Assembly: GCF_007954365.1 (NCBI RefSeq)
Contig: NZ_VOLO01000001.1
Coordinates: 124,001-188,000, forward strand
Length of the DNA: 64,000 bases
Origin: Frigoribacterium sp. ACAM 257
GTDB lineage: Bacteria; Actinomycetota; Actinomycetes; Actinomycetales; Microbacteriaceae
Direction of reading: 5' to 3'
Shown here piece after piece: positions 367 through 51,840 of this stretch. A program made the translations under genes and the position numbers. The notes beneath the pieces are model-generated. The model saw nothing but the letters and a program-made list of their open reading frames with translations. It was not told where the DNA came from and did not search any database. Within the stretch, counting starts at the first letter, position 1; every line of letters begins with the position of its first letter.

Positions 367-406
367 CCCGGCCGCGCGGTGCCCGGCCGCGCGGTGCCCG
401 GCCGCG
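367..406. repeat. 15-bp tandem repeat, 2.6 copies
   Basis: The unit CCCGGCCGCGCGGTG is repeated exactly at 367-381 and 382-396, with a partial third copy running into the 86-bp element that starts at 406. It lies between the convergent genes ending at 354 and 594. Confidence 0.85.
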
Positions 407-491
407 TCGAGGACTCAGGTGTCGACCGCTGCCACGCCCCCGAGGTGCTGTCGGCGACGGGCCGCGCGACGTCATCGCCTGAGTGCTCGAC
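406..491. repeat. 86-bp inverted-arm element, copy 1
   Basis: The left arm is GTCGAGGACTCAGG (406-419) and the right arm CCTGAGTGCTCGAC (478-491), with one mismatch between them. They enclose 58 bp. It belongs to a nine-member family in this window, all exactly 86 bp. This copy lies between convergent genes (MFS fragment and response regulator). Confidence 0.9.
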
Positions 492-495
492 CTGT

Positions 496-559
496 CCTGA
501 GGTCTGAGGCCCGAGGCCCGAGGCCTGAGGCCTGAGGCCTGAGGCCCGAGGCCTGAGGC
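496..559. repeat. 7-bp tandem repeat (CCTGAGG/CCCGAGG), about 9 units
   Basis: A run of heptamers alternating between CCTGAGG and CCCGAGG fills the gap between the 86-bp element and the end of the response-regulator gene. Such a short-period array is prone to copy-number change. No coding role is visible. Confidence 0.85.
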
Positions 560-593
560 GCGGCGGCCGCAGCCCGCCGCGCCCGGCCGGGCA

Positions 594-1256
594 TCAGCCC
601 CCGGCGAGCCCGTTCTCGTACGCGAAGATCACCGCGTGCACCCTGTCCCGCAGGGCGAGCTTCGCCAGCACGCGGCCGACGTGCGTCTTCACGGTCGACT
701 CCGACAGGTAGAGCTCACCGGCGATCTCCGAGTTGCTGAGGCCCCGTCCGATGGCGACGAGCACCTCGTGCTCGCGCTCCGACAGCAGGTCGAGCGAGGA
801 GGCGCGGCGGGCGCCTGCACGATCGGGCAGCCGCCCCCGGTACAGGTCGAGCATCGCCCGGGTGACACGGGGCGACACGATGGCGTCGCCCGCGGCGACG
901 GTCCTGATCGCGGCGACGAGCTCGGCGGGAGGCGCGTCCTTCAGCAGGAAACCGCTGGCGCCGGCGTTGAGGCCGCCGAACGCGTACTCGTCGAGGTCGA
1001 ACGTCGTCAGCACGAGCACGCGGGCCTCCGGGCGAGCAGCCACGATGCGGCGGGTGGCCTCGATGCCGTCGAGCCCCGGCATCCGGACGTCCATGAGGAC
1101 GACGTCAGGGCGCAGCTCGGCATCGCGCTCGACGGCGGAGAGGCCGTCGGCGGCCTCGCCCACGATCCGCAGGCCCGGCTGTGCCCCGAGCACCATGGCC
1201 ATGCCGGCGCGGAGCAGGTCCTGGTCGTCGACGAGCATCACGGTGGTCTCGGTCAC
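594..1256 (-). CDS. Two-component response regulator, NarL/LuxR type
   Basis: A 220-residue DNA-binding regulator. The receiver domain (about 1-120) has the acidic pair D10-D11, the phosphoacceptor D56 in LMDVRMPG and a conserved K near 107 (LLKDAPP). A LuxR-type helix-turn-helix (LSEREHEVL ... NSEIAGELYLSESTVKTHVGRV) occupies the C-terminus. The GTG start overlaps the stop of the upstream histidine kinase by 4 bp (GTGA), so the two are translationally coupled. Its operon also encodes an ABC exporter, so control of that exporter is the likely role (inference). Confidence 0.95.
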   Translation of the reverse strand: MTETTVMLVDDQDLLRAGMAMVLGAQPGLRIVGEAADGLSAVERDAELRPDVVLMDVRMPGLDGIEATRRIVAARPEARVLVLTTFDLDEYAFGGLNAGASGFLLKDAPPAELVAAIRTVAAGDAIVSPRVTRAMLDLYRGRLPDRAGARRASSLDLLSEREHEVLVAIGRGLSNSEIAGELYLSESTVKTHVGRVLAKLALRDRVHAVIFAYENGLAGG

Positions 1257-2635
1257 GGCGCCTCCTCGGGCATCGGGTCGGCGTCCCCGACGGGCTGAGC
1301 GCCGCCGGCTGCGGTGCCGCGGGCGTCGTCGCCCGGGGCCGGGAGGACGAGGCGCAGCCGCCAGCCTCGACCGCCCAGCTCGTCGCGCGGTCCAGCCTCG
1401 AGTCTGCCCCCGAAAAGCGCCGCGCGCTCCCGGAGGCCGACGAGCCCCCGTTCCGTCCCGACCGACGCGGCGGGGACGGCGCCCTCGCCGTCGTCGACGA
1501 CCTCGACGGTCACCTCGCCGAGTCCGTGTCGGCGGCGGCCGCCGCCCGGCTCGGCGCCCCGCGACGCCGGGCCCCGCAGGACGACCGCGACCCGCGCGGG
1601 CCGGTCGGCGTACCTCAGGGCGTTCGTCAGCCCCTCCTGCACGGTCCGGTACAGCACCACCTGCACGGCGGGAGCGGTCGGCAGGTCGCCCTCCCGGGTC
1701 AGCGCGACGGGCAGGCCGGCCGAGCGGTAGGTCTCCACGAGGTCGTCGAGCCCGTCGAGGCCCGGCTGGGGAGCGAGCGCCGCGTCCTCGTCCCCGTCGT
1801 GCAGCACGCCCAGTAGGCGGCGCATGTCGGCCAGCGCCTCCCTGCCGACGACGCCGATCTGGCGCACCGCGTCCCGGCTGCGTGCCGGGTCGGCGTCGGC
1901 CACGGCGTCGGCCCCGTCGGAGAGGCTGATCATGACGGACATGCCGTGGGCGACGACGTCGTGGAGCTCGCGGGCGATCCGCGCGCGTTCCGCGCCCGCG
2001 GCGAGGCGCGCCTCCTGGTCACGGTCGCGTTCGAGCTGTGCAGCCCGGTCGATGAGGGCGGCGAGGTACTGGCGCCGGCTGCGCACGTTGAGCCCGACGA
2101 GCACGACCACCACGATGCCGAACGCCGCCACCAGGGGCGACTCGAGCTGCGGCACGAGCGTGGCCGAGAGCGCCCCCAGGAGCCCCACGACCGCTGCCGA
2201 GCAGCCCCAGGCCCAACGAGCGCCACGGTGCGCCGCGACGGAGTAGAGGGCGATGAGCAGGGCCCAGGGCAGGGCGGGCTCATCGAGCGCGGCCTGGCCG
2301 ACGAGGGAGACGAAGGCGACCGCGACCACGGTGACCGGCAGGCGGCGGCGCAGCAGCAGCCCGCCGTAGGCCAGGGCCCAGAACACGTACCAGGGCCACG
2401 TGGCCGACAGCACGACGACCCACGGAGCGAGCTGCGAGATCCCGCCGGCGAACCCGACCGCGCCGACGACCAGGGCCACGACCACGTCGGTCGCGACGGG
2501 GTGCGCGGCGAGCCGACGCCGGACGGCCCCGGGCGGACGCGGGGCCGTCACGACGTCGGCGGCGGCGCGCGCGCGGCCTCCCGGCCCCGGCACGTGGTCG
2601 GGCCCCGACGACGAGGAGGCGCGTCTCGAGGTCAT
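1253..2635 (-). CDS. Sensor histidine kinase, HisKA_3/DesK type
   Basis: A 460-residue membrane kinase. About five hydrophobic segments lie between residues 48 and 185, followed by a short coiled linker and the HisKA_3 dimerisation box RIARELHDVVAHG with H225 as the phosphorylated histidine. The ATP-binding domain has the N box around EGLTNALRYA and the G box GTERGLVGLRERA. There is no large extracellular sensor domain, so the stimulus is probably sensed in or near the membrane, or through the neighbouring transporter. It begins one base after the permease stop and overlaps the response regulator gene. Confidence 0.95.
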   Translation of the reverse strand: MTSRRASSSSGPDHVPGPGGRARAAADVVTAPRPPGAVRRRLAAHPVATDVVVALVVGAVGFAGGISQLAPWVVVLSATWPWYVFWALAYGGLLLRRRLPVTVVAVAFVSLVGQAALDEPALPWALLIALYSVAAHRGARWAWGCSAAVVGLLGALSATLVPQLESPLVAAFGIVVVVLVGLNVRSRRQYLAALIDRAAQLERDRDQEARLAAGAERARIARELHDVVAHGMSVMISLSDGADAVADADPARSRDAVRQIGVVGREALADMRRLLGVLHDGDEDAALAPQPGLDGLDDLVETYRSAGLPVALTREGDLPTAPAVQVVLYRTVQEGLTNALRYADRPARVAVVLRGPASRGAEPGGGRRRHGLGEVTVEVVDDGEGAVPAASVGTERGLVGLRERAALFGGRLEAGPRDELGGRGWRLRLVLPAPGDDARGTAAGGAQPVGDADPMPEEAP

Positions 2636-2636
2636 C

Positions 2637-3458
2637 TCAGATGTCGCGGCGCGCAGTCGCCCACGCCGCGGCCGCGGTCGGCACGACGAGCCACGCGGCG
2701 AGCACGCCCAGGTCTCGGCCCAGGTCGGCAGCGGGCTCGGTGCCCGAGAAGAGGTGGCTCATGGTCGTCTCAGCGTACGTGAGGAGCAGGACGGACCAGT
2801 CGGCGCCCTCGCCCGCGGTCACGAGGACCACGGCCACGGGCAGCACGAGCAGTACCCCGAGGACGATGGCGATCGCCCCGGCCGAGCTCCGGACGAGGGT
2901 GGCGACCATCACGGTGAACACCGTGAGCACGACGAGCCACGCCGCCGCGGAGCCGACGGCCTGCAGCACCGGGGGGTCGACCAGCGAGGTCCGGAGGCCC
3001 GTGCTCGACAGCACGAGGCTCGACGCCGTCCACGCCGCGACCGACGAGGCCGCCGAGAGCACGACGGCGGCGCCCGCGGCGACGAGGGTCTTGGCCGCGA
3101 GCACGTGCAGGCGACGGGGCACGGCCGCCCAGGTGGTCCGCTTCTGGCCGGTCGCGAACTCCTGGGTGACGAAGAGCACGACCAGGACGGTCACGAAGAG
3201 CTCGACGACGGTCGTCGCGGGCGCCATCGTGCGGAGGGTCGTCGCCACGCCGCCGGCCAGTGCCCCGGCAGGGTCGGAGGCGTCGGTGAGGGCGACGGCG
3301 GCACTCGCCGCGGCGGACAGAACGACGGTCAGCGCCGCGATCAGCCAGGTCGAGCGCAGGCTCGTCAGCTTCGTCCGCTCCGACCGCGCCACCCCGGCGA
3401 AGGTCAGGCGCGGCGCTCGGTCGAGGGGGGCGAGAAGGGGTGCGGCGATGGTGGTCAC
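2637..3458 (-). CDS. ABC-2 type exporter permease
   Basis: A 273-residue integral membrane protein with about six hydrophobic segments. The N-terminal cytoplasmic stretch SERTKLTSLRSTWL is typical of ABC-2 permeases that pair with a separate ATPase. The GTG start at 3458 is preceded by a GGAG motif. It lies between the ATPase gene (186 bp upstream) and the histidine kinase (1-bp gap). It is weakly similar to the second permease at 39489-40367, which shares the SEWIKLRSLRSTAW-like stretch. The substrate is unknown; peptide antibiotic or drug export is common for such ABC plus two-component loci. Confidence 0.9.
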   Translation of the reverse strand: MTTIAAPLLAPLDRAPRLTFAGVARSERTKLTSLRSTWLIAALTVVLSAAASAAVALTDASDPAGALAGGVATTLRTMAPATTVVELFVTVLVVLFVTQEFATGQKRTTWAAVPRRLHVLAAKTLVAAGAAVVLSAASSVAAWTASSLVLSSTGLRTSLVDPPVLQAVGSAAAWLVVLTVFTVMVATLVRSSAGAIAIVLGVLLVLPVAVVLVTAGEGADWSVLLLTYAETTMSHLFSGTEPAADLGRDLGVLAAWLVVPTAAAAWATARRDI

Positions 3459-3577
3459 GAGGTGTCTCCGATCGGGAGGGACGAAACGGGAAGGCGAGGG
3501 GAAGAGGCAGAGAGGGGGAAGAGAAGGAGGGAGCGCGTCAGCGACGAGCTCGAGCCGGGGCAGCAGGCAGGCCCGCC

Positions 3578-3663
3578 GTCGAGGACTCAGGAGGTGCTGG
3601 TCACGGCACCCCGGTCACGGGCGTCGCCGAGGTGCGCCGGCCGCTCACACCTGAGTCCTCGAC
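3578..3663. repeat. 86-bp inverted-arm element, copy 2 (overlaps gene end)
   Basis: The arms GTCGAGGACTCAGG (3578-3591) and CCTGAGTCCTCGAC (3650-3663) are perfect inverses separated by 58 bp. The right arm encodes the last residues of the ABC ATPase, and the base pairs just inside it supply the TGA stop at 3645-3647. Confidence 0.92.
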
Positions 3664-4562
3664 CCCGACCGGTACTCGACCGAGTCGTCCGTCAGCCCGA
3701 AGAAGGCGTCCTCGAGCGACGTCTGCGTCGGCGTCAGCTCGAAGAGCAGCACCCCCGCGGGCGCGGCCGCACGGGCGACCTGCTCCGCGGTGAGCCCCGT
3801 GACCTCGAGGCGGTCGGCCGAGAGGCGTGAGACGGTGCCGCCGAGCTGGCCCAGGAGGTCCTCGAGGCGGTCCGGCGAGTCGGTCCTGACCACGACCTTC
3901 CCGCTGCCCTGGCCCGCGAGCACGTCCGCGACGGAGGCGTCGGCGATCACGCGGCCACGGCCGAGCACCACGAGGCGGTCGGCGGTCTGCGCCATCTCGC
4001 TCATCAGGTGGCTCGAGAGCAGCACGGCCCGGCCCTCGGCGGCGAGCGAGCGGCAGAGCTGTCTCACCCAGATGACGCCCTCGGGGTCGAGGCCGTTGAC
4101 CGGCTCGTCGAGCACGAGCGTCCCGGGGTCGCCGAGCAGGGCGGTGGCGATCCCCAGCCGCTGGCCCATGCCGAGCGAGAAGGTGCCGGCGCGGCGCCGG
4201 GCGACGGACTCGAGCCCGGCGAGGCCGATGACCTCGTCGACGCGGCGGTCGGGGATGCCGTGCGTGCGGGCGACGGAGCGGAGGTGGTCGCGGGCGGTGC
4301 GTCCCGGGTGGACGGCGCCGGCGTCGAGCAGGACCCCCACCTCCTGCAGGGGAGCGGGGCTGTCGGCGTAGCGGCGCCCGTTGACCGTGACCGTGCCCGA
4401 GGTCGGCCGGTCGAGCCCGACGACCATCCGCATGGTGGTCGACTTGCCGGCGCCGTTCGGCCCCAGGAACCCGGTGACGGTGCCCGGCGCGACGGTGAAC
4501 GAGACGTCGTCGACGGCGAGGGAGGTGCCGTGGCGCTTGGTGAGGTGGCTGGCTTCGATCAT
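3645..4562 (-). CDS. ABC exporter ATP-binding protein
   Basis: A 305-residue ATPase starting MIEASHLTKRHG. It has Walker A GPNGAGKST (residues 34-42), signature FSLGMGQR, and Walker B LVLDEPVNGLDPEG followed by the H-loop LSSHLMSEM. I chose the ATG at 4562 because it matches the paralogue at 40364-41341, and TACCGT lies 7 bp upstream, suggesting a leaderless transcript. An in-frame ATG at 4625 is less likely. The two paralogues align through DSVEY; after that this protein ends in a short tail (RSGSRTQV) mostly encoded by the 86-bp element. It energises the permease at 2637-3458. Confidence 0.95.
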   Translation of the reverse strand: MIEASHLTKRHGTSLAVDDVSFTVAPGTVTGFLGPNGAGKSTTMRMVVGLDRPTSGTVTVNGRRYADSPAPLQEVGVLLDAGAVHPGRTARDHLRSVARTHGIPDRRVDEVIGLAGLESVARRRAGTFSLGMGQRLGIATALLGDPGTLVLDEPVNGLDPEGVIWVRQLCRSLAAEGRAVLLSSHLMSEMAQTADRLVVLGRGRVIADASVADVLAGQGSGKVVVRTDSPDRLEDLLGQLGGTVSRLSADRLEVTGLTAEQVARAAAPAGVLLFELTPTQTSLEDAFFGLTDDSVEYRSGSRTQV

Positions 4563-4694
4563 GTCCACGACGGTACGGAGCGTCGTCCTCGCGCAGATCG
4601 GAGCACGGTGCCGTCGTCCTGGCACCGGAGTACCACGCGTCGCGGGAAGTCACGTGCCCGGCCGGTGCCCCGCGCCTGTGGCAGGGTCGACCAG

Positions 4695-6167
4695 GTGAGC
4701 GACCACACCGACGACACCGCCCTGACGCCCGGCACCGCCCCGACCCCCGGCACCGCCCCGACGCCGATGACGGTCCCGACCCCCGACGTCGCCCGCGGTG
4801 CGAAGAAGCCGCTGATCCTCAACCTCTTCGAGATGAACTGCGTCGGCCACATCACGCACGGTCTCTGGCGGCTGCCCGGCAACCACCGTCGTGAGTACAC
4901 CGACATCCGCTACTGGACCGAGCTCGCCCGCCTGGCCGAGCAGGGCGGCTTCGACGCCGTGTTCCTCGCCGACGTGCTCGGCACCTACGACGTCTACGGC
5001 GACAGCCCCGCGCCGGCCCTGATGGAGGGCATCCAGGCACCGGCGAACGACCCGATGCTCGTCGTGCCGGCGATGGCGGCGGTGACCGAGCACCTCGGCT
5101 TCGGCGTCACGGCGTCGACGAGCTACGAGCCGCCCTTCGCCTTCGCGCGCCGCATGTCGACGCTCGACCACCTCACGGGCGGGCGGGTCGGCTGGAACGT
5201 CGTCACCTCGTACCTCCCCTCCGCCGCGCGCAACTTCGGGCTCGACGACCAGATCCCGAAGGAGGAGCGCTACGCCAGGGCGGCCGAGTACCTGGACGTG
5301 CTCTACAAGCTCTGGGAGGGCTCGTGGGAGGACGACGCCGTCGTCGCCGACCCGTCCGCCGACGGACTCGCTCCCGGGTCGGGGGTCTACACCGACCCGT
5401 CCAAGGTGCACACGATCGACCACGACGGTCGCTTCTACAAGGTCGCCGGGCCGCACCTCAGCGAGCCGTCGCCGCAGCGCACCCCCGTGCTGTTCCTCGC
5501 GACCGCGTCGCCGACAGGTGTCGAGCAGGCCGCCCGCAACGCCGAGGTCGTCTTCACCGGCGGTCGCGCGGTGGCGCGCGTCGCCGAGGCCACGCGTGCC
5601 GCCGCGGTCGAGGCGGGCCGGGCCGCTGACGACGTCCGCTTCATCGTCCAGGCCGGCGTGGTCACGGCCGAGACCGAGGAGGCGGTGGCAGAGAAGCTGG
5701 CCCTCTACCGGTCGTTCGCCAGCGAGCAGGGCGCGCTCGTGCACCGCAGCGTCCCCTTCGACGCGCCGTCGCACGACCCCGCGACGACCGTCCGCGAGGC
5801 CCTCGTGGCCGAGGGGCGTCTCGACCACCCGGGGGCCGCCTCCTTGCCTCTCGACATCACGGTCGGCGAGCTGATCGCCAGCGTCGACGAGGCCTGGGGC
5901 GGTGCGTTCTTCGTCGCGGGCACGCCGACGGTCGTCGCCGACGAGATCGAGCGCTGGCTCGACGAGGAGGGCATCGACGGGATCAACCTGCGGCAGTACC
6001 ACTCGTACGACACGCTGCGCGACTTCGTCGAGCTGGTGGTGCCCGAGCTGCGCCGCCGTGGCCGGGTGCGCGAGGCGTACGTGCCGGGCGAGACGCTGCG
6101 CGAGCGGTACACGGGGGGCGGGCCGCGCCTCCCTGCCTCGCACCCCGCGGCGGCGTACCGACGCTGA
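4695..6167 (+). CDS. NtaA/DmoA-family flavin-dependent monooxygenase
   Basis: A 490-residue luciferase-fold monooxygenase of the nitrilotriacetate/dimethylsulfide/alkanesulfonate group. Family features are LNLFEMNCVGHITHGLWRLP near the start, GFDAVFLADVLGTYDVY, the substrate/FMN region TASTSYEPPFAFARRMSTLD and GRVGWNVVTSY. The GTG at 4695 has a CAGGGT box 7 bp upstream, consistent with a leaderless start. The first 35 residues contain two copies of TPGTAP from an 18-bp tandem repeat at about 4727-4764 and are probably disordered; an ATG at 4767 is an alternative start. The actual substrate, and the reductase that would supply FMNH2, are not visible here. Confidence 0.88.
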   Translation: MSDHTDDTALTPGTAPTPGTAPTPMTVPTPDVARGAKKPLILNLFEMNCVGHITHGLWRLPGNHRREYTDIRYWTELARLAEQGGFDAVFLADVLGTYDVYGDSPAPALMEGIQAPANDPMLVVPAMAAVTEHLGFGVTASTSYEPPFAFARRMSTLDHLTGGRVGWNVVTSYLPSAARNFGLDDQIPKEERYARAAEYLDVLYKLWEGSWEDDAVVADPSADGLAPGSGVYTDPSKVHTIDHDGRFYKVAGPHLSEPSPQRTPVLFLATASPTGVEQAARNAEVVFTGGRAVARVAEATRAAAVEAGRAADDVRFIVQAGVVTAETEEAVAEKLALYRSFASEQGALVHRSVPFDAPSHDPATTVREALVAEGRLDHPGAASLPLDITVGELIASVDEAWGGAFFVAGTPTVVADEIERWLDEEGIDGINLRQYHSYDTLRDFVELVVPELRRRGRVREAYVPGETLRERYTGGGPRLPASHPAAAYRR

Positions 6168-6179
6168 GGAGGCGGCTGC

Positions 6180-6611
6180 CTAGGCGGCGCGGCGGACGCG
6201 GTAGCGCGCGGGCACGGACGGCACGCGCAGCCACGTGGTGCGGCGGACGCCGTCGGACGAGGTCCACTCGACGAAGATCGTGCCGAGCTCGGCGAGGGCG
6301 CCGATCTCGGTCGGCGTCGCGACGCCCATCGTCGATCGGCGGCGCAGTGCGTCCGTGCGGCGGGCGACGCCGCCGGGGAGCTCGACGACCACGTCGCGGG
6401 GCGTCTGGCCGCCGACGCGGCGGAGCACGAGGCAGGCGCCGAGCGGCAGGGCCGGGTCGCTGCCGTCGTTCGGGACGTCGAGCCAGGTGAGGAAGAAGGA
6501 GGGAGCCCGGCGCAGTCGGACGACGCGCTCGGGGCGGACGCGCCGGTCGTCGCCGAGCTGCTGCGGAGCGGAGGCGCGGACGGCGTCGGTGCCGTGTGCG
6601 GTCGAGTCCAT
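6180..6611 (-). CDS. Uncharacterised 143-residue protein
   Basis: The start is ATG 6611 because AGGGGA sits at good spacing upstream; the frame extends further but without a better start. The protein is soluble and basic, with a beta-rich centre (RRAPSFFLTWLDVPNDG, LPLGACLVLRRVGGQTPRDVVVELPGG) and an Arg-rich C-terminus. No family was recognised. It ends 12 bp from the convergent monooxygenase gene. A role cannot be assigned. Confidence 0.6.
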   Translation of the reverse strand: MDSTAHGTDAVRASAPQQLGDDRRVRPERVVRLRRAPSFFLTWLDVPNDGSDPALPLGACLVLRRVGGQTPRDVVVELPGGVARRTDALRRRSTMGVATPTEIGALAELGTIFVEWTSSDGVRRTTWLRVPSVPARYRVRRAA

Positions 6612-6813: not shown

Positions 6814-6899
6814 GTCGACGATTCAGGCGTGGACGTCCTCGCCCGGCTGCGCTGCCCGGTGCCACGGGGCGCCGCGACGACGTCTCCTGAATCGTCGAC
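6814..6899. repeat. 86-bp inverted-arm element, copy 3
   Basis: The arms GTCGACGATTCAGG (6814-6827) and CCTGAATCGTCGAC (6886-6899) are perfect inverses separated by 58 bp. They differ from copies 1 and 2 only inside the four-base variable window. The element lies between divergent genes, so it is not simply a terminator. Confidence 0.92.
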
Positions 6900-14318: not shown

Positions 14319-14404
14319 GTCGACGAATCAGGAGGCGCGGCCCAGGGGGGACCGCGCCTCCGTCGTCCCCGGTCGGTCCCGACGTTCGTGCCTGAGTCCT
14401 CGAC
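14319..14404. repeat. 86-bp inverted-arm element, copy 4
   Basis: Left arm GTCGACGAATCAGG (14319-14332), right arm CCTGAGTCCTCGAC (14391-14404), two mismatches between arms in the variable window, 58 bp between. A nested hairpin GGAGGCGCGG/CCGCGCCTCC (14331-14361) lies inside. The element lies between the transporter operon and the co-directional lacI-type gene. Confidence 0.9.
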
Positions 14405-20842: not shown

Positions 20843-20928
20843 GTCGAGCGTTCAGGAGACGACGTCGTCCACGGTCCCGACGGAACGCGTCGCGACCGGG
20901 GTCGACCGCCGTCGCCTGAGTCCTCGAC
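20843..20928. repeat. 86-bp inverted-arm element, copy 5
   Basis: Left arm GTCGAGCGTTCAGG (20843-20856), right arm CCTGAGTCCTCGAC (20915-20928), 58 bp between. Arms differ from each other only in the four-base window. AGACGACGTCG follows the left arm, as in copy 6. Confidence 0.9.
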
Positions 20929-20950: not shown

Positions 20951-21036
20951 GTCGAGGAGTCAGGAGACGACGTCGCGGGCGGCGCGGCCGGAGGGCGCCG
21001 AGCCGGGGTCGCGACGTCGAGACCTGAATCATCGAC
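20951..21036. repeat. 86-bp inverted-arm element, copy 6
   Basis: Left arm GTCGAGGAGTCAGG (20951-20964), right arm CCTGAATCATCGAC (21023-21036), 58 bp between. It lies 22 bp from copy 5 in a convergent gap. Confidence 0.9.
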
Positions 21037-25890: not shown

Positions 25891-26089
25891 AGGCACGACC
25901 GCGTCCCTGTCCAGTGGGCATCGTGGGGGACCGCGCGTACCCCGTCCGGGTGCTTCCGTGTAAATTTCGTGGCCGGTCGAGGACAGTGGCCGGGTTCGGC
26001 CATGGCCCCCGGTTGAGGGTCGTCGAATTCTCAGGTAACTCTTACGGATCGACCGTGCCCGACCGGGTGCGGCACCCGGAAGGCATCCT

Positions 26090-35085: not shown

Positions 35086-35171
35086 GTCGACGATTCAGGC
35101 GTCGTCGTCGTCCGGCTGCCCCGGGGCCGGTCCGCTCCGGGTCGCCGTCGCCCGTCGCCTGATTCCTCGAC
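35086..35171. repeat. 86-bp inverted-arm element, copy 7
   Basis: Left arm GTCGACGATTCAGG (35086-35099), right arm CCTGATTCCTCGAC (35158-35171), 58 bp between. It lies between two divergent genes and 50 bp from the 70-bp four-box palindrome. Confidence 0.9.
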
Positions 35172-35220: not shown

Positions 35221-35290
35221 CGACGGCGGGTCTTCCGGGTCGAGGGCGGGTCACGGACTACCCGCCCTCGACCCGGAAGACCCGCCCTCG
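35221..35290. repeat. 70-bp four-box palindrome, copy 1
   Basis: Four boxes related to GAGGGCGGGTC are laid out as outer-left 12 bp, 6-bp spacer, inner-left 14 bp, 6-bp centre, inner-right 14 bp, 6-bp spacer, outer-right 12 bp. In this copy the spacers are also complementary, giving a perfect 27-bp stem (35225-35251 with 35260-35286) with an 8-nt loop. The same 70-bp layout recurs at 62728-62797. Confidence 0.9.
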
Positions 35291-45923: not shown

Positions 45924-46283
45924 ATGATCACGCGACGAGACGCTGCGCTGCAGCTCGATATCCCGCTCGAGATGGCGGTGCGCCACGGCATCCCCGCGAA
46001 GCTCACGCTCGACGAGCTGCTCGAGCTGGAGAAGACGCCGCCCGCGTGGCTGCTGCAGTCACGGGCCAACCGCACGGGCAAGCCCGTCTGGGTCGACCTC
46101 GCCTGCGTCGTGTGCGGCTACCACGAGGCTTCCCGGCCGAAGAAGTGGTGGCCGGCGTGGACGCACCTGAGCTGCGACGACCACGGCGTCGACGAGCTCC
46201 CCGAGCCCGAGCAGGGCACGGCCCGCAGCGAGGTGGCCGGTGTGGGCAGTCGCTTCGTCGCCATCGTGGACGAGCGGCCGTAG
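45924..46283 (+). CDS. Uncharacterised protein with possible zinc site
   Basis: A 119-residue protein. The N-terminus looks helical (DAALQLDIPLEMAVRHGIPAKLTLDELLELEKTPPAWL). Then CVVCGYH (C61, C64) and SCDDHG (C84, H87) form a CxxC plus CxxH pattern consistent with a zinc ribbon, with a Trp-rich stretch KKWWPAW between. No family was recognised. ATG 45924 has TAGGCT seven bases upstream. Confidence 0.65.
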   Translation: MITRRDAALQLDIPLEMAVRHGIPAKLTLDELLELEKTPPAWLLQSRANRTGKPVWVDLACVVCGYHEASRPKKWWPAWTHLSCDDHGVDELPEPEQGTARSEVAGVGSRFVAIVDERP

Positions 46284-46300
46284 TCCGTCCGGCCGGCCGG

Positions 46301-47221
46301 TCAGCCGCGGTAGCCGACCGACGCCGGGGCGTCGAGGCCGGCCAGCAGGTGCACGAGCGCCTGGCGGGCGTCGTCGGCGAGCATCTGTCGTTGGATGTGC
46401 TGGTCGTGCCAGTGCACGAGGTCAGCCGTGCTGACGCCGCTCGTGGTGTCGTCGTCGACCGCCTCGCCTGCCTCGTCCGCCTCGGCGACCACGTAGCGGA
46501 ACGCCCACGGGTCGCCCTCGTCGGCGAGCGTGGTCCGGTGTCCGAGCAGGCGACCCGTCGAGACGTCGACGAGGACTTCGTGCCCTGGGTCGCCGGGATC
46601 GGGAAGCCGGACGTCGACCCGTCCGTGGGGCGACGTCTCGTCCGGCCCCGCGACGCGGGTCCCGAGGACTGCCGTGCCGATCGAGCTGCCCTCGACGGCC
46701 CTCGGCACCCCGGATCGAGGAGGCGCGCTCCGGTCGAGCCCCGACACGACGTCGTCGACGACCCGGGTCACCGCGGCCTCGACCGCGTCGTCCGCGGACG
46801 CGAGCCGCCGTGCGGAGGCGCGCATCCACCTCTCGAGCACGACGAGCTCGTCCGGCGTGAACGGGTCGGGCTCGAGCGAGTGGACGGAGAAGTCGGCGGC
46901 CTCGACCGACCACTCCCACGAGAGGACGACGCGCACCATGGCGGTGCTGCGCGGAAGGAGCGCCAGCACCCCGCGCCGCAGACCAGGGGTCCAGTGCAGC
47001 TCGGGGTCGTCGAGCAGGGGGCGCAGCCGGTCGGCCGACGCCCTCGCGCCGGAGGGGACCTCGAACTCGACCAGCACGTTGCGCCAGGGGGTCGCACGGC
47101 CGGGGACGACGTCGTGCTCCCGTCGCACGGTGAGGACGGTCGCAGTGTCGTCACCGCGCCGTCGTGGGCCGGAAGCGTCACGGGAGGCAGGGTCGACAGG
47201 CACAGGGACGGATCCTGCCAC
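46301..47221 (-). CDS. Uncharacterised 306-residue protein
   Basis: A soluble, acidic protein without signal peptide or membrane segment. It has a beta-rich N-terminal half (ATVLTVRREHDV, RNVLVEFEVPSG, MVRVVLSWEWSVEAADFSVHSLEPD), an Asp/Val-rich middle and a C-terminal helix with HWHDQHIQRQMLADDARQALVHLL. The GTG at 47221 is preferred because GGAGG lies five bases upstream; 47227 is the alternative. A pentanucleotide repeat array sits directly upstream. No family was recognised. Confidence 0.6.
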   Translation of the reverse strand: MAGSVPVPVDPASRDASGPRRRGDDTATVLTVRREHDVVPGRATPWRNVLVEFEVPSGARASADRLRPLLDDPELHWTPGLRRGVLALLPRSTAMVRVVLSWEWSVEAADFSVHSLEPDPFTPDELVVLERWMRASARRLASADDAVEAAVTRVVDDVVSGLDRSAPPRSGVPRAVEGSSIGTAVLGTRVAGPDETSPHGRVDVRLPDPGDPGHEVLVDVSTGRLLGHRTTLADEGDPWAFRYVVAEADEAGEAVDDDTTSGVSTADLVHWHDQHIQRQMLADDARQALVHLLAGLDAPASVGYRG

Positions 47222-47232
47222 GCTCACCTCCG

Positions 47233-47284
47233 ACCGAGCCGAGCCGAGCCCAGCCGAGCCGAGCCCAGCCCAGCCCAGCCGAGT
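47233..47284. repeat. 5-bp tandem repeat (CCGAG/CCCAG), about 10 units
   Basis: The units alternate between CCGAG and CCCAG in the 97-bp gap between two minus-strand genes, ending 12 bp before the start codon at 47221. It thus lies in the presumed 5' leader or promoter of that gene. Confidence 0.85.
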
Positions 47285-47318
47285 CCGGCCGGGCCCGACC
47301 AGGCTGGGTCCTGCGCGG

Positions 47319-48191
47319 CTAGAACGTCAGCTGGTCGGGGGAGTCGAGCGGCACCCACCCCTCGGGCAGCCCCGACGGCGGCCGGACCGTCGGCACGACC
47401 TGCAGCGAGTCGGCCTCGGCGAGCTGGGCGAGCTCGAGGCCGGTCAGCGAGGCGATGTCGCGCACGGGCACCTGGAAGGTGCGATACGGCCCCAGCGGGG
47501 GCAGCTCGTCGTCGTCACGGGCGCGCAGCACGGCCTGCTCCAGCTCGGCGTCGTCGAGCTGGGGGGACTGGTCGAGCAGGTACCCGGCCGTCCGCAGCGC
47601 CGCGCCGTCACGTGTCGCCCACGCGGCGACCTTCCAGAAGCGCAGCGGCAGCTGGACCCCCCGGTACGTCGGGTCGTCGGGGTCGAGCACCGGGCCGGTC
47701 AGGACGGTCAGCCGCTGCTGGTGCGCGGCGGCGTACTCGAGCACGTGGTCCTCGAGGCCGAGCCAGAGCTCGGACGACTGGTTGAAGTCGCCCGCCTGGG
47801 GCGCGGCGTTCGTGTAGGTGAAGGTGTCGAGATTCGCGCGCGAGGCGACGGCGGGCGTTCCCCAGACCGGGTCACGACGCCGCACGAGGTGGCCCCGGTC
47901 GAGGTCGTTGCGGGCGTAGACCCCCGGCCCGCACTGCTCAGCGACGGGGACCCGCTCGTCGAGGTGCCAGTCGTCGCCGCGCTCGAGGTCGACCAGGGAG
48001 GCGCCGTCCACGTTCACCGCGGTCGCGGCCGCGAGGCGTCGCACCGGGTCGAGCAGCACGGTGAAGTGGGCGTAGGGCAGCTCGCGCACGTCGCGGGGGC
48101 CTGCGGCCGGCAGGGGGACCTGCACGGCGAGGAACCCGGGATCGTAGCCGAGGGCAGCCGCCGCCTCGGGCTGGTCGTCTGCGATGGTCAT
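47319..48191 (-). CDS. DNA/RNA non-specific endonuclease, beta-beta-alpha metal type
   Basis: A 290-residue NUC-family (Endonuclease_NS) protein. The hallmark DRGHL occurs in ARNDLDRGHLVRRRDPVWG with the general-base histidine. The metal-binding Asn region is TNAAPQAGDFNQSSELWLGLEDHVLEYA. Usual family members are secreted, but this one has no signal peptide: it starts MTIADDQPEAAAALGYDPGF. ATG 48191 is well placed after AGGAGG. A cytoplasmic or specially exported nuclease is therefore possible. Confidence 0.85.
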   Translation of the reverse strand: MTIADDQPEAAAALGYDPGFLAVQVPLPAAGPRDVRELPYAHFTVLLDPVRRLAAATAVNVDGASLVDLERGDDWHLDERVPVAEQCGPGVYARNDLDRGHLVRRRDPVWGTPAVASRANLDTFTYTNAAPQAGDFNQSSELWLGLEDHVLEYAAAHQQRLTVLTGPVLDPDDPTYRGVQLPLRFWKVAAWATRDGAALRTAGYLLDQSPQLDDAELEQAVLRARDDDELPPLGPYRTFQVPVRDIASLTGLELAQLAEADSLQVVPTVRPPSGLPEGWVPLDSPDQLTF

Positions 48192-48296
48192 CCGCGCCTC
48201 CTGCTGGTCGGTGGGTGGTCTCGGCCCATCGTGCACCGCGCCTCCGACACCGGCCCGCGCCGCGCCGCGCCTGCCGGGCGGGCCGGCCGGCCGACG

Positions 48297-48956
48297 TCAG
48301 TCGGCGAGGATCGCGTAGAGCGCTCGCCGCGTCTCGTCGAGCTTGGCGGTCGCGGCGGCGCGCTGTGCGTCGGTCACGCCGGAGCGGAACTGCTGCACGA
48401 CGCCGAACAGCTTGCCGAGGCTCTCGCGGAACTCGTCCGAGGCCTCGTCGCCGGTCGTGGCGGCCCAGGCCGCCTCGACGGCGTCCGCGTGCTCGGCCAC
48501 GTAGCTGCGGCCGGCCTCGGTGAGCGAGTACTCGCCCTTGGCGGCCTCGTCGCCGGCGACGATCAGCTCTTCGTCGACGAGCTGCTGCAGCGTGGGGTAG
48601 ACCGAGCCGGGGCTCGGCTTCCAGACGCCGTCGGTGCGCTCGGCGATGGCCTTGATCAGGCCGTAGCCGTTCGACGGCGCGTCGGCCAGCAGCGACAGGA
48701 CCGCGAGGCGGACGTCGCCCTTGCGGGCACGGCCGCGGCCGCCGCGGTGGCCGCCGGGGCCGAAGCCGGGGAACCCGGGGAAGCCGCCGAAGGGGCCGGG
48801 GCCCCCGGGGCCGGCGCCGAAGCCGGCGCCGCCGGGACGGCCGCCGCGGGCGAAGGGGCGGCCGAAGCGGCCCCCACCGGCGAAGCGGTCGTGCTGGTCG
48901 CGGCGGTCGGAGTGGTCAGGGTGGTCGGGATCCATGTGGTGGTGTGCGTTGCCCAT
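48297..48956 (-). CDS. PadR-family transcriptional regulator
   Basis: A 219-residue repressor. A His/Asp-rich start and a long Gly/Phe/Arg/Pro-rich low-complexity stretch (about 20-75) precede the PadR winged helix (DVRLAVLSLLADAPSNGYGLIKAIAERTDGVWKPSPGSVYPTLQQLVDEELI), followed by a C-terminal helical dimerisation region. The start is ATG 48956 (GAGGA upstream): an earlier in-frame ATG at 49013 overlaps the promoter -10 box. It probably represses itself through the inverted TTGAC/GTCAA repeats in its promoter. The Gly-rich N-terminal tail is unusual. Confidence 0.9.
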   Translation of the reverse strand: MGNAHHHMDPDHPDHSDRRDQHDRFAGGGRFGRPFARGGRPGGAGFGAGPGGPGPFGGFPGFPGFGPGGHRGGRGRARKGDVRLAVLSLLADAPSNGYGLIKAIAERTDGVWKPSPGSVYPTLQQLVDEELIVAGDEAAKGEYSLTEAGRSYVAEHADAVEAAWAATTGDEASDEFRESLGKLFGVVQQFRSGVTDAQRAAATAKLDETRRALYAILAD

Positions 48957-49007
48957 GGGGAAACGTCCTCTCGTTCTCAAGACTGTGTCGCGGTGGTTGT
49001 CGCGATG

Positions 49008-49041
49008 TGTCAAAGATATGTCGTTGACTATCGTTTGTCAA
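49008..49041 (-). promoter_or_regulatory. padR promoter with overlapping inverted repeats
   Basis: On the minus strand TTGACA (49041-49036) and TATCTT (49018-49013) are separated by 17 bp. TTGAC and GTCAA form inverted repeats with 8-bp (49024-49041) and 10-bp (49009-49028) spacers across both boxes. This AT-rich patch stands out in high-GC DNA. Confidence 0.8.
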
Positions 49042-49046
49042 CAGTC

Positions 49047-49100
49047 AGGACAGAACGAAGGAGGCGCACCCTGGTGGGTGCGCCTCCTTCGTCCTGTCCT
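49047..49100 (-). terminator. Terminator of the CitE-like gene
   Basis: A 25-bp stem with one mismatch (49047-49071 with 49076-49100) encloses a TGGT loop, immediately before the padR -35 box, insulating padR from the gene upstream. Confidence 0.85.
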
Positions 49101-49107
49101 GGGTCGG

Positions 49108-50016
49108 CTAGCTGGCCGGGGCGACGCCGAAGGCCGTGGCGAGCTTCTCGATCTTCTGCGCGCGGCCGAGGCGCGGCAGGTCGCTGCCGTCGCGGATGAC
49201 GCGGCCGCGGCCCTCGAAGTCGGCGAGGAAGTCCTGCGCCCAGGCGACGTCGGAGGGCGTCGGGCTGATGACCTCGTTGATGACGGGCAGCTGCTCGACG
49301 TCGAGGCAGAGCTTGCCCGTCAGGCCGAGGGCGACGGCGACGCCCGCCTGCTCGCGGAGCACGGGGTGGCTGCTGCCGACCGTCGGGCCGTCGATCGGGC
49401 CGGGCAGGCCGCCGATGCGGCTCGCGACCACCAGGCGGGAGCGGGGGTAGGCCATCGCGAGGTCGTCGGCGCTCGTGCCGGTGTCGCGGCGGTAGTCGCC
49501 GCTGCCGAACGCGAGGCGGAACGCGCCGCGCGCCTTGGCGATCGAGGGGCTCTCCTCGATGCCGAGCGCGGACTCGACGAGGGCGAGGACGCGCACCGCG
49601 CCTCCCAGGCGGTCGAAGGTCTCGGTGACGTGCTCGGGCGCCTCGGTCTTGGCGAGCATGACTCCCTGCAGGCCGGGCAGGCCCAGCAGGGCGTCGACGT
49701 CGTCGGACCAGAAGTCGGTCGAGCGGTCGTTGATGCGGACCCAGGCGCGGCCGCCGGCGGTGAGCCAGGCGACGACGTCGTCGCGGGCGGCGGGCTTGCG
49801 GGCAGGGTCGACGGCGTCCTCGATGTCGAGCACGATCTGGTCGGCACGCGAGCGTGCGGCCTGGTCGAAGCGCTCGGGAGTGGTGCCGGGCACGAGCAGC
49901 CACGAACGGGCGATGTCCGCCGGCGGCTTCGAGCGGCCCGTCGTCGTCGAGCCCGTGGCGGCGGAGCCGGACGGAGCGGCGTCGGGGGCGCCGGCGGTGG
50001 TGGCTGTGTCGGTCAT
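49108..50016 (-). CDS. HpcH/HpaI aldolase/CitE-like CoA ester lyase
   Basis: A 302-residue TIM-barrel protein. The motifs RSWLLVPGTTPERFDQAARSRAD, VLDIEDAVDP (metal-binding acids), RINDRSTDFW, VMLAKTEAPEH and LVESALGI (metal-binding Glu) define the citrate lyase beta-subunit/malyl-CoA lyase group. No lyase partner subunits lie nearby, so it is a stand-alone CitE-like enzyme of unknown substrate. A Thr/Ala/Gly-rich 30-residue N-terminal tail precedes the fold. ATG 50016 follows GAGGA. Confidence 0.9.
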   Translation of the reverse strand: MTDTATTAGAPDAAPSGSAATGSTTTGRSKPPADIARSWLLVPGTTPERFDQAARSRADQIVLDIEDAVDPARKPAARDDVVAWLTAGGRAWVRINDRSTDFWSDDVDALLGLPGLQGVMLAKTEAPEHVTETFDRLGGAVRVLALVESALGIEESPSIAKARGAFRLAFGSGDYRRDTGTSADDLAMAYPRSRLVVASRIGGLPGPIDGPTVGSSHPVLREQAGVAVALGLTGKLCLDVEQLPVINEVISPTPSDVAWAQDFLADFEGRGRVIRDGSDLPRLGRAQKIEKLATAFGVAPAS

Positions 50017-50271
50017 GGGACGTCCTCGTCTGTCTCGTCGCGTGTCGCCGTGTCCGCTCGTCGCGGGCGGCGTGCCCCACCACGCTACCGGCCCCGTCGC
50101 GGCGCACGAGCGGCGGCGCGCAGCCGCGCGTCTCCGCGTGCCGGGCGAGGGCTCCCGCCCGGCAGCCGCCGTCGGGCGTACCGTTCAGCGAGACCACAGG
50201 CGACACCCGGGGTCACGGAGCACTTCGCGCGTGCCCGGGGCGTCGCGAGGCCACGATCACGAGGAGCTGCC

Positions 50272-51840
50272 ATGACCGACGCGAACACCCCGAGAGACCG
50301 CGCCGACGAGGGCGACGCCCGCGACCGCGCCCCGCGCGAGCCGGCCCGCGACCCGCTCGACGACGCCCCGCAGGCCGACCGCGACCCGAGTGCAGGCCCC
50401 GCCGCCGACGGCCCTGCCGTCGACTTCGGCGCGCCCGCCGGCTCGAGTTCACCCGCCGTCGACCTCGGCGGACCGGCGGAGCCCGCCGTGGCTCCCGAGG
50501 ACCGCGTCGAGCTCTCAGGTGAGGGCGACCGCGACGGCTCGGCCGACGGCCGGGCCGACGACGGCTCGGCGACGTCTCCTGACTCGTCGACGGGCCCGGC
50601 CGCGCCGCCGGCCGTCTCGTTCGGCGACGCGCCTGCGGACCACGCGAGCGACGTCGCGCGCGACGGTCGCGTCGAGGACTCAGGCGATGACGACGCCCGC
50701 GACGGCGTCGACGCGTTCGCAGCACCGGCGGCGACCACGGCACCTGACTCCTCGACCGACGACGAGCGCCTGTCGGGCCCGGACGGTCGTTCGTCGTCTG
50801 ACCACGCCGACACCGACCACGCCGACACCGAGGTCCTCCACGACCGGGTCGAGTCCGACCGTCGTGACGACGTCGACCGTCGTGACGACGTCGACCGTCG
50901 TGACGACGAGGCCCGGGTCGTCCCGCCCGTGGTCGCGCCGACGCCCCCGGCGTCCCGAGCCTGGTCCGCCGCTCCGCAGGACGACTCCGGCCGTCCCCTG
51001 CACGACGACGACGCCCTCCGCGCCGCCGAGGCGCACGGTGCCCCGGCCGACGACGCGTCGACCGACGCCGACCGCCGCGACGCCGACCGCCGCGACGACG
51101 CGCCGACCGTGGTCGCCCCCGTCGCGGCGCCCGGCCGTGGCGACGACGCGCCCACGACGGCGTGGCGCACTGACGACGGCCGGGTCGCCGGTCGTCCGGG
51201 AGGCGCCGGCTCGGCCACGGGATCACAGGCGTATCCGCTCGTGGCCGAGACCGCGGACCCCGTCGCGCTCCGTCGTGAGCTCCTCACCGAGCAGAAGCAG
51301 GAGTTCTCCGGCATGCGGTTCGGCGCCGGCCTGCTCGGCTGGTTCGCGGCGACGGGCTTCGGCGTGTCCGTGTTCGTCGTCTTCGCCGCGATCGCGTCGG
51401 CCGTCGTCGCCGCCTCGTCGGGCTCGAGCCCGGACGGCTTCCGCGGCTACCTGGGCGACAACGCCGAGGTCCTCTCCCTCACGACCGGGATCGTCGTCCT
51501 GGTCATCGTCTTCGCCGGGTACTTCGTCGGCGGATTCACCGCGTCACGCGTCGCTCGCTTCTCCGGGTTCAAGCAGGGGCTGGCCACCTGGCTGTGGGGG
51601 CTCGTCATCACGATCGTCGTCGGCGTGATCGGCGCCGTCGTCGGCGTCCAGGCCGGCGACCAGTCCGCACCGAACCCGATGATCCCCTCGATGGACGACA
51701 TGTCGTCGACCTCCGTCGAGTCGTTCGTCTTCCTCGGTCTGCTGCTGGTGCTGAGCTTCGGCGGGGCCGTGCTCGGCGGCCTCCTCGGCCAGCGCTGGCA
51801 CCGCAGGGTCGACCGCTTCGTGCCCGAGCACCAGGTCTGA
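50272..51840 (+). CDS. Membrane protein with long acidic disordered N-terminus
   Basis: A 522-residue protein. The first about 340 residues are dominated by Asp, Arg, Ala, Pro, Ser and Thr and look disordered, with short repeats RRDDVD (three times) and DADRR. Two 86-bp elements are embedded in frame and give the recurring peptides VE-SG and PDSST. A conserved-looking junction (VALRRELLTEQKQEFSGMRFGAGLLGW) leads to four membrane segments, ending in a basic tail (GQRWHRRVDRFVPEHQV). GAGGAG precedes ATG 50272. The C-terminal part resembles YrzE-like/TIGR04086-type small membrane proteins only loosely; function unknown. Confidence 0.75.
   Translation: MTDANTPRDRADEGDARDRAPREPARDPLDDAPQADRDPSAGPAADGPAVDFGAPAGSSSPAVDLGGPAEPAVAPEDRVELSGEGDRDGSADGRADDGSATSPDSSTGPAAPPAVSFGDAPADHASDVARDGRVEDSGDDDARDGVDAFAAPAATTAPDSSTDDERLSGPDGRSSSDHADTDHADTEVLHDRVESDRRDDVDRRDDVDRRDDEARVVPPVVAPTPPASRAWSAAPQDDSGRPLHDDDALRAAEAHGAPADDASTDADRRDADRRDDAPTVVAPVAAPGRGDDAPTTAWRTDDGRVAGRPGGAGSATGSQAYPLVAETADPVALRRELLTEQKQEFSGMRFGAGLLGWFAATGFGVSVFVVFAAIASAVVAASSGSSPDGFRGYLGDNAEVLSLTTGIVVLVIVFAGYFVGGFTASRVARFSGFKQGLATWLWGLVITIVVGVIGAVVGVQAGDQSAPNPMIPSMDDMSSTSVESFVFLGLLLVLSFGGAVLGGLLGQRWHRRVDRFVPEHQV
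50506..50591. repeat. 86-bp inverted-arm element, copy 8 (inside coding sequence)
   Basis: Left arm GTCGAGCTCTCAGG (50506-50519) encodes VELSG, and right arm CCTGACTCGTCGAC (50578-50591) encodes PDSST. The arm starts are 72 bp (24 codons) apart, so both are read in the same frame. Confidence 0.88.
50671..50756. repeat. 86-bp inverted-arm element, copy 9 (inside coding sequence)
   Basis: Left arm GTCGAGGACTCAGG (50671-50684, VEDSG) and right arm CCTGACTCCTCGAC (50743-50756, PDSST), 58 bp between. It lies 79 bp after copy 8 in the same gene and the same reading frame. Confidence 0.9.

What the first reader, a model, noticed from the sequence alone, without database searches (positions are those of the whole stretch)
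406..50756. Nine 86-bp elements with fixed-length spacing: GTCGA-N4-TCAGG, 58 bp, CCTGA-N4-TCGAC
Elements occur at 406-491, 3578-3663, 6814-6899, 14319-14404, 20843-20928, 20951-21036, 35086-35171, 50506-50591 and 50671-50756. All are exactly 86 bp. All 18 arms keep the ten outer bases, and only the four-base window varies (mostly SGAN). The 58-bp centre shows no overall conservation beyond a tendency to GACGACGTCG next to the arms. Left and right windows in one element often do not complement each other, which argues against simple RNA-hairpin selection. Absence of any length change argues against an ageing mobile element. Two half-sites 72 bp apart, recognised by one protein complex (nucleoid protein, recombinase, RAYT-like nuclease or chromosome-organising factor), would fit. 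I know of no described family with these properties.
Basis: seen in the sequence. Interest (0 to 1): 0.92.

Follow-up and report, generated by a model that had tools for sequence, protein, structure and literature searches.

The report
Nuclease gene with orbiting paired sites
The nine 86-bp elements are paired DNA sites with a fixed, helix-matched spacing, scattered around the gene of an unstudied DNA-binding nuclease that probably binds them, which suggests a kind of bacterial system that has not been described.

Summary
All nine elements are exact; the genome has 20 exact ones, all in one 170-kb stretch. Lengths step by about one helical turn (75-76, 85-89, 96-98 bp). Orthologous copies keep the arms while the centre drifts, and paired positions do not covary, so these look like protein sites on DNA, not hairpins.

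The clusters surround a gene 9.8 kb left of the window: an AbiEi-type winged-helix fold fused to a Vsr/EDxHD-type nuclease. A close homologue with an element 98-167 bp before its start was found in 11 of 18 element-bearing genomes looked at; Saccharothrix and four with one or two exact pairs are unexplained. In the genus, gene and elements co-occur (6 with, 10 without). A paralogue 700 kb away has its own arm sequence and its own elements around it. Element density falls about 100-fold from 0-10 kb to 100-300 kb from the gene.

Best reading: two AbiEi-nuclease protomers bind the two ~25-bp arms. One element is the gene's operator; the rest form a tethering array around it. Binding is inferred, not shown, and why distant sites are kept is unknown. 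The paper searches made turned up no description of this.

The parts
406..491 (.). paired-arm element 1 (86 bp), convergent intergenic (+ gene, then - gene that looks like a response regulator by eye). Nearest element-bearing nuclease gene lies outside the window, at G000 C6:113000-114154, with its upstream element at C6:114286-114371
3578..3663 (.). paired-arm element 2 (86 bp), overlapping the 3' end of a - strand ABC-transporter ATPase gene
6814..6899 (.). paired-arm element 3 (86 bp), divergent intergenic, upstream of an FAD/ALO oxidase gene
14319..14404 (.). paired-arm element 4 (86 bp), between a permease gene and a LacI-type regulator gene, both +; its centre holds a terminator-like inverted repeat (by eye)
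20843..20928 (.). paired-arm element 5 (86 bp), convergent intergenic
20951..21036 (.). paired-arm element 6 (86 bp), 22 bp after element 5
35086..35171 (.). paired-arm element 7 (86 bp), divergent intergenic, before a YjeF_N gene
50506..50591 (.). paired-arm element 8 (86 bp), inside a 522-aa ORF of my own gene caller without Pfam match at E 1e-4
50671..50756 (.). paired-arm element 9 (86 bp), inside the same ORF

Best explanation
Each element is a composite binding site: two inverted ~25-bp arms (yGTCGAsgAnTCAGGhGncGncGkCG) whose outer ends lie about 75, 86 or 97 bp apart, so that both arms present the same face of the helix. The arms are bound by the AbiEi-type winged-helix half of a nuclease whose gene stands within the element cluster (C6:113000-114154 here, outside the window). 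Two protomers bind one element, bend or loop the DNA between them (58 bp here), and so hold their two C-terminal Vsr/EDxHD nuclease domains in a defined, paired state. The element just upstream of the gene is its operator (autoregulation, as in AbiE). The other elements around the gene (6-32 exact ones per Frigoribacterium genome, operator included where exact) form an array that tethers or titrates the protein near its gene. Shown: arm anatomy, quantised spacing, conservation of arms but not centre, absence of covariation, clustering around the gene, operator-like placement, co-occurrence in the genus, a paralogue with its own arms. Inferred: paired binding on one helix face (0.7). Guess: that the array serves to keep a harmful nuclease parked and paired (0.3). 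The first three rivals below mostly concern the function of the array and are compatible with the same binder, so the odds do not add to one.
For: Clustering: 36, 63, 82 and 93 of 100 exact type A elements in six Frigoribacterium genomes lie within 10, 25, 50 and 100 kb of the type A gene (0.6, 1.5, 3.0, 6.1 expected); density falls from 0.30 to 0.0029 per kb per genome. Co-occurrence: the type A gene (485 bits or more) is in 6 of 6 element-bearing and 0 of 10 other Frigoribacterium genomes. Operator position: 11 of 11 type A genes found (9 with 0-1, 2 with 2 mismatches of 20) have an element ending 98-167 bp upstream (some starts are those of my gene caller or of the profile match). Paralogue: type B elements have arms GTCGGCAACTCCTG; 8 of 12 type B genes examined have one upstream with 3 or fewer mismatches, and 50 of 64 type B elements lie within 50 kb of a type B gene against 3.7 expected. 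Domains: AbiEi_4 and MTES_1575, PADLOC AbiEi, AlphaFold model of residues 1-295, pLDDT 89, Foldseek AbiEi 6y8q E 3.7e-6 and Rv2827c 1zel E 1.8e-5. AbiEi-family proteins bind paired 23-bp inverted repeats, and AbiEi bends the DNA (PMC7319586, passages). DNA-level constraint: 0-1 mismatch of 20 in 45 of 49 comparisons with the three closest genomes.
Against: No binding data. Of 18 element-bearing genomes looked at, 7 have no close homologue shown beside the element: three Saccharothrix genomes with pairs on many contigs (there only 98 of 150-197 candidates per genome were scored), the Microbacterium MAG (best 163 bits, other contig), G274 (20 kb seen), G241 (40 kb seen, only a distant paralogue 24 kb away) and G313 (its family hits lie on other contigs than its element). 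Four of 12 type B genes have no upstream element at 3 or fewer mismatches (two of them have one at 4). In the dense clusters 83 of 752 upstream stretches of all called genes also reach 3 or fewer mismatches. Microcella, G178 and G333 share part of the gene's neighbourhood with Frigoribacterium, and orthologous elements are not independent counts. Autoregulation alone does not explain why distant elements are kept.
Confidence: 0.7

Rival explanations
1. Chromosome-organising or partition-like site array: the protein behaves like ParB or MatP, and the sites build a nucleoprotein domain around its gene; the nuclease fold is secondary.
For: Gene within its own site cluster, sites kept at orthologous positions and placed without regard to gene orientation; the flanking genes tested have unrelated functions. 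The arrangement resembles parS clusters around parAB (recalled).
Against: The main cluster sits about 0.85 Mb from dnaA in the one single-contig genome used; 10 of 16 Frigoribacterium genomes lack the exact type A pattern; the putative nuclease residues are invariant in 18 of 18 sequences.
Confidence: 0.15
2. Selfish homing-type or addiction system: the EDxHD nuclease punishes damaged or missing elements (for example cleaves half-sites or incoming unmarked DNA), which keeps arms perfect and keeps gene and sites linked.
For: The nuclease half resembles the catalytic domain of the homing endonuclease I-Bth0305I (3r3p_B, Foldseek prob 0.99 but E 0.15), which dimerises on a target of nearly 60 bp (PMC3943268, passages); between the window genome and its three closest relatives elements are all-or-none, 0-1 or 6-7 mismatches with nothing between; some genes carry an element at both ends.
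Against: No empty-site comparison was made base by base; the type A gene stands at the syntenic place in all six Frigoribacterium genomes; no phage match and one weak plasmid match; in the more distant G003 four intervals hold best matches with 3-4 mismatches at 86 bp, which may be decayed copies although random intervals there also reach 3.
Confidence: 0.25
3. Classical regulon: the elements are operators of the neighbouring genes and the protein a local transcription regulator.
For: One element lies 131 bp upstream of the nuclease gene, which overlaps an aldolase gene followed by a kinase gene; several elements lie in divergent or start-proximal positions.
Against: Among 92 elements 22 are convergent, 21 divergent, 38 tandem and 11 inside ORFs; flanking genes tested have unrelated functions.
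Confidence: 0.12
4. RNA hairpin, terminator or cruciform element.
For: Arms are inverted repeats; one element holds a terminator-like inverted repeat in its centre (by eye).
Against: Complementarity of N4, extension and centre is no higher than after shuffling partners (0.522 v 0.493 sd 0.024; 0.474 v 0.471; 0.385 v 0.384); all gene orientations occur.
Confidence: 0.02
5. Decayed or current MITE/REP-like mobile element.
For: Local tandem arrays with similar centres in G012 and G006.
Against: Centres look unrelated elsewhere, length does not spread, arms are kept, position tracks a gene.
Confidence: 0.05

Closest known systems
AbiE type IV toxin-antitoxin operators (AbiEi, Rv2827c)
   Same: AbiEi-fold protein; pair of inverted ~23-bp repeats in front of its own gene; bending of the promoter by two AbiEi monomers (PMC7319586 and PMC3985639, passages seen)
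   Different: Here the arms are much further apart (AbiE repeats are separated by 3 bp, Rv2827c repeats within a pair by 13 bp), the protein carries a nuclease domain and no AbiEii toxin gene is adjacent, and many further copies surround the gene
EDxHD homing endonucleases (I-Bth0305I)
   Same: Vsr-like catalytic domain; long target met by a dimer (PMC3943268, passages seen)
   Different: AbiEi-type domain for binding, inverted-repeat sites, many intact sites in the host; introns or inteins were not looked for
RAYT and REP/BIME elements (recalled)
   Same: Short paired repeats in intergenic DNA linked to one nuclease-type gene
   Different: Unrelated protein; REP are dispersed genome-wide and hairpin-forming; here arms only, helix-quantised spacing, gene-centred
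parS/ParB and matS/MatP site clusters (recalled)
   Same: Many conserved sites in one chromosomal region, ParB gene within its site cluster
   Different: Different protein fold, two-arm sites, main cluster not near dnaA, present in a minority of relatives

Membership tests
AbiEi antitoxin family | AbiEi N-terminal winged helix | tested here: met
   Pfam AbiEi_4 25.9 bits against a cut-off of 25 for the window genome's protein; Foldseek to 6y8q and 1zel. The Microcella protein has no Pfam AbiEi match, only weak PADLOC ones (E 0.016 and 0.039)
AbiE type IV toxin-antitoxin system | Adjacent AbiEii/DUF1814 nucleotidyltransferase toxin | tested here: not met
   The two genes on either side in the window genome are PfkB kinase, KDPG aldolase, solute-binding protein and permease; other genomes not tested
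AbiE type IV toxin-antitoxin system | Inverted-repeat operator upstream of the gene | tested here: met
   11 of 11 type A and 8 of 12 type B genes; spacing differs from AbiE; operator function itself untested
AbiE type IV toxin-antitoxin system | Protein binds the repeats and represses | not testable with these tools
   needs EMSA and reporter assays
EDxHD/Vsr-like nuclease | Vsr-like fold with conserved acidic and histidine residues | tested here: met
   MTES_1575 24.3 and 21.8 bits, below its cut-off of 38.2; DUF559 20.7 bits against 20.6 in the Microcella protein; Foldseek 3r3p_B prob 0.99, TM 0.73 by target, but E 0.15; E186, D213, E223, D225, H230, D237, K240 invariant in 18 of 18 (catalytic role by analogy)
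Homing endonuclease gene | Gene inserted in, and cutting, alleles that lack it | not tested
   no empty-site comparison and no assay
RAYT/REP | Y1 HUH transposase and hairpin-conserved REP | tested here: not met
   no covariation; candidate protein is AbiEi plus Vsr-like
parABS | ParB protein and origin-proximal sites | tested here: not met
   candidate protein is not ParB-like; in G007 dnaA is at 0.219 Mb and 13 of 15 elements at 1.05-1.13 Mb of 3.33 Mb

The most novel reading that the evidence does not exclude
A gene-centred guard array: a stand-alone AbiEi-nuclease whose surrounding two-arm sites act as a DNA-encoded antitoxin, holding nuclease pairs silent on intact sites while a damaged or missing site (or unmarked incoming DNA) frees or activates them, so that gene, sites and the roughly 100 kb between them are inherited as a block.
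Probability: 0.25. Interest if true: 0.93.

Novelty: categorically new. Interest (0 to 1): 0.82.

Why it matters
It ties a set of unexplained conserved, mostly intergenic elements to a little-studied nuclease family (AbiEi-type winged helix fused to a Vsr/EDxHD-like domain), and shows a layout not known to me: a nuclease gene inside a distance-decaying cloud of its own two-arm sites, with arm sequence tracking protein subfamily. It gives testable predictions on what orphan AbiEi-nucleases do, on how a host tolerates a nuclease with 20-30 chromosomal sites, and on how local site arrays are kept by selection. The parts (AbiEi operator, Vsr-like nuclease) are known; the array and the combination are what I rate as new.

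Tried and rejected
RNA hairpin or terminator: disfavoured by the shuffle test. Genome-wide nucleoid motif: all 20 exact elements lie in one stretch. Origin macrodomain: the main cluster lies about 0.85 Mb from dnaA in G007; the terminus was not located. A changed version of the same element in genomes lacking the type A pattern: the scan for fixed-distance dyads in G004, G010, G013 and G015 gave no such version, but another, apparently covarying 58-bp dyad family, not followed up. Family hits at own-genome C6:395143, C7:126857 and C7:581105: no exact pair of this arm type in the 40-60 kb fetched around each. Of 16 more distant family loci scanned for promoter inverted repeats, three (L147, L151, L155) show a plausible pair near the start, one (L152) a pair further off that I do not trust, and twelve none; I give this little weight. 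Saccharothrix arrays (22-bp pitch, several arms each side) share arms and lengths of 85-87 and 97 bp, but 0 of 7 fetched 8-kb loci hold an A2 homologue; unresolved. Paper searches: AbiEi + inverted repeat (11 papers listed); AbiEi + DUF559 (0); DUF559 + inverted repeat (0); MTES_1575 (4); Frigoribacterium + inverted repeats (0); AbiEi antitoxin domain-containing / very-short-patch-repair endonuclease (2); I-Bth0305I (5); AbiEi + Vsr (2); Microbacteriaceae + palindromic repeat (19, of which 6 were listed and 13 not seen). Nothing in the listings, or in the passages of the four papers opened, describes these elements; most listed papers were not opened. Ascertainment: the pair identities use elements found by their arms; the interval test of the same call does not, but two pairs of neighbouring elements share one interval each there. 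The gene calls are those of a simple caller I wrote, which missed two of the nuclease homologues (G300, G333).
Full report
1. The observation. The own genome (3.33 Mb, 14 contigs; window = C6:124001-188000) holds 20 exact pairs, 19 of 86 bp and one of 85 bp, all in C6:4856-174756, and none with the reversed control pattern. A 21st with one mismatch lies at C6:110421. Of 58 single arms in the genome 42 lie in that stretch; of the 16 others none has an SGAN N4.

2. Anatomy. Over 184 arms of six Frigoribacterium genomes the information extends past the 14-mer: yGTCGAsgAnTCAGGhGncGncGkCG, about 25 bp. When every exact left arm is paired with every exact right arm 50-150 bp on in the fetched Frigoribacterium regions, only lengths 75 (8), 76 (3), 85 (7), 86 (67), 87 (6) and 89 (1) occur. 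In Microcella the same count gives 86 (1), 87 (2), 97 (1), 98 (3) and six pairs between 110 and 148, which come from multi-arm groups. Paralogous (type B) elements give 75-76 (14), 85-87 (41) and 96-98 (9) of 64 within a search range of 69-99. These are steps of about one helical turn. Left and right positions do not covary: N4 0.522 complementary against 0.493 (sd 0.024) after shuffling partners, extension 0.474 v 0.471, centre 0.385 v 0.384; 15 of 92 elements have fully complementary N4. This speaks for protein-DNA recognition on one face of the helix and against a hairpin.

3. Conservation. For the G000 elements whose interval could be located by flanking orthologues, the best match in the interval has 0-1 mismatches of 20 in 15 of 17 (G007), 17 of 18 (G011) and 13 of 14 (G012); the rest are at 6-7, the level of random intervals (control minimum 4, 4, 5; median 7). 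In the more distant G006 3 of 9 and in G003 4 of 12 are at 0-1; four G003 intervals have 3-4 mismatches at exactly 86 bp, perhaps decayed copies, but random G003 intervals also go down to 3. Neighbouring elements 144843/144951 and 174506/174671 share an interval each, so they are not separate tests. In 27 equal-length pairs the ten outer bases are 99% identical, N4 75%, extension 76%, centre 61%, flanks 57% (pairs were found by their arms, so the 99% is partly ascertained).

4. Placement. Of 92 elements in six genomes 81 are mainly intergenic (22 convergent, 21 divergent, 38 tandem) and 11 lie in ORFs of my own gene caller, although 84-86% of the DNA is called coding. The genes tested beside the window's elements have unrelated functions (luciferase-like, ALO oxidase, permease, LacI, alkaline phosphatase, hydrolase, YjeF_N, ABC ATPase).

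5. The gene in the cluster. The clusters in Frigoribacterium and in Microcella alkalica both contain, next to an element, a gene whose product has an AbiEi_4 winged helix and/or a Vsr-type MTES_1575/DUF559 domain. In the window genome it is C6:113000-114154 (minus strand), 9.8 kb left of the window, overlapping by 4 bp a KDPG aldolase gene that is followed by a PfkB kinase gene; the element C6:114286-114371 ends 131 bp before its start. Both lie outside the window and so are not in the parts list. Close homologues were then found beside elements in G178, G285, G300 and G333 too. The MTES_1575 scores are below the curated cut-off, that of DUF559 in Microcella just above; NCBIfam has no match and no PDB sequence matches credibly. 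The AlphaFold model of residues 1-295 (pLDDT 89, 18 sequences) matches AbiEi 6y8q and Rv2827c 1zel best, and, more weakly, the I-Bth0305I catalytic domain (prob 0.99, E 0.15). Candidate catalytic residues are invariant in 18 of 18 sequences.

6. Linking gene and sites. (a) Of 100 type A elements in six genomes 36, 63, 82 and 93 lie within 10, 25, 50 and 100 kb of the gene, where 0.6, 1.5, 3.0 and 6.1 are expected; density falls from 0.30 to 0.0029 per kb per genome between 0-10 and 100-300 kb. (b) The type A gene (485 bits or more) occurs in 6 of 6 Frigoribacterium genomes with the exact pattern and 0 of 10 without; those ten have only paralogues, at 345 bits or less. (c) An element ends 98-167 bp upstream of the start in 11 of 11 type A genes found. 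In all upstream stretches of called genes in the seven cluster regions, nuclease genes included, 83 of 752 reach 3 or fewer mismatches, because the clusters are dense. (d) The paralogue (type B, C6:812270 here, same contig, 700 kb away) has arms GTCGGCAACTCCTG. Of 64 such elements in 15 of 16 Frigoribacterium genomes searched, 36 are within 10 kb and 50 within 50 kb of a type B gene (0.7 and 3.7 expected); many of these are orthologous and so not independent. 8 of 12 type B genes examined have one upstream with 3 or fewer mismatches; of the other four, two have 4, one 6 and one 7. In the window genome no type A element lies within 100 kb of the type B gene and no type B element within 100 kb of the type A gene. 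(e) Specificity: of 96 genes in the G000 cluster, blastp against my gene calls in five other clusters found three genes in four clusters (one is an ABC ATPase by Pfam, the other two look like ABC-transporter genes by eye), and the nuclease in three; the profile search over all ORFs found the nuclease in five of five. Microcella, G178 and G333 share part of the neighbourhood, so the strongest independent support is the type B paralogue, G285 and G300.

7. What does not fit. Counting every genome with an exact type A-pattern pair that I looked at (18), 11 have a close homologue beside an element and 7 do not. Three Saccharothrix genomes have 21 pairs of 85-87 or 97 bp in multi-arm arrays with 22-bp pitch, on many contigs, and no homologue at E 1e-8, though only 98 candidates per genome were scored; 0 of 7 fetched loci hold one. 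The Microbacterium MAG G063 has one pair, with its best homologue at 163 bits on another contig. G274 has no homologue in the 20 kb fetched; G241 only a distant one 24 kb away; G313 has family hits only on other contigs than its pair. Of 299 genomes of the family sampled 13 have the exact type A pattern, so this arm type is patchy.

8. How it probably works. AbiEi proteins bind pairs of 23-bp inverted repeats in front of their genes, with positive cooperativity and bending for AbiEi and negative cooperativity for Rv2827c (PMC7319586, passages seen; PMC3985639, passages seen). The EDxHD enzyme I-Bth0305I dimerises on a target of nearly 60 bp (PMC3943268, passages seen). A protein with both halves would fit an element made of two ~25-bp arms in helical register. 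I take the upstream element as operator, and the others as tethers that keep the nuclease paired and near its gene. Binding and function are inference. Which pressure keeps the distant elements is open: parking of a harmful nuclease, a guard or addiction system, or a structural array (see rivals).

9. Novelty. Nine paper searches (one of ten unused) gave, in their listings and in the passages of four papers opened, no description of the elements, of an AbiEi-Vsr protein binding DNA, or of a gene-centred array of this kind; 13 of the 19 papers were not listed and most listed papers were not opened. The MTES_1575 domain was named in PMC3710099 as a Vsr-type REase (passages seen). Subscription literature and preprints were not searchable.

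Noticed in passing
G004 C1:82796, 93904, 96626, 97734; G013 C5:1233975, 1242741, 1272476; similar in G015 and G010: A different 58-bp dyad family (CACC.C....CGAACC-N12-GGTTCG....G.GGTG) with apparently compensatory arm changes recurs in the syntenic region of the four type A-lacking Frigoribacterium genomes fetched.
   Followed up: no
window 35227-35284; also window 62734 and C6:57736: Dyads of about the form CGGGTC..GTCGAGGGCGGGTC-N-GACCCGCCCTCGAC..GACCCG recur with 58-bp length.
   Followed up: no
L021, L028, L033, L035, L039, L045, L050 (Saccharothrix): Arrays of inverted arms at 22-bp pitch (right-pointing arms, then 72 bp in most, then left-pointing arms) on many contigs of Saccharothrix genomes.
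   Followed up: partly
G012 C1:1034678-1035740, 1050101-1050581, 1099089-1099504; G006 C1:999374-999878: Local tandem arrays of elements with similar centres at about 130-180 bp pitch, a possible way new elements arise.
   Followed up: no
type B genes in G002, G004, G008, G009, G013, G015; type A genes in G285, G300: A second element of 98 bp overlaps the 3' end of the nuclease gene, so that several of these genes are flanked by elements.
   Followed up: partly
window 26022-26035: An unpaired left arm GTCGAATTCTCAGG; its partner position at 86 bp has 5 of 10 mismatches.
   Followed up: yes
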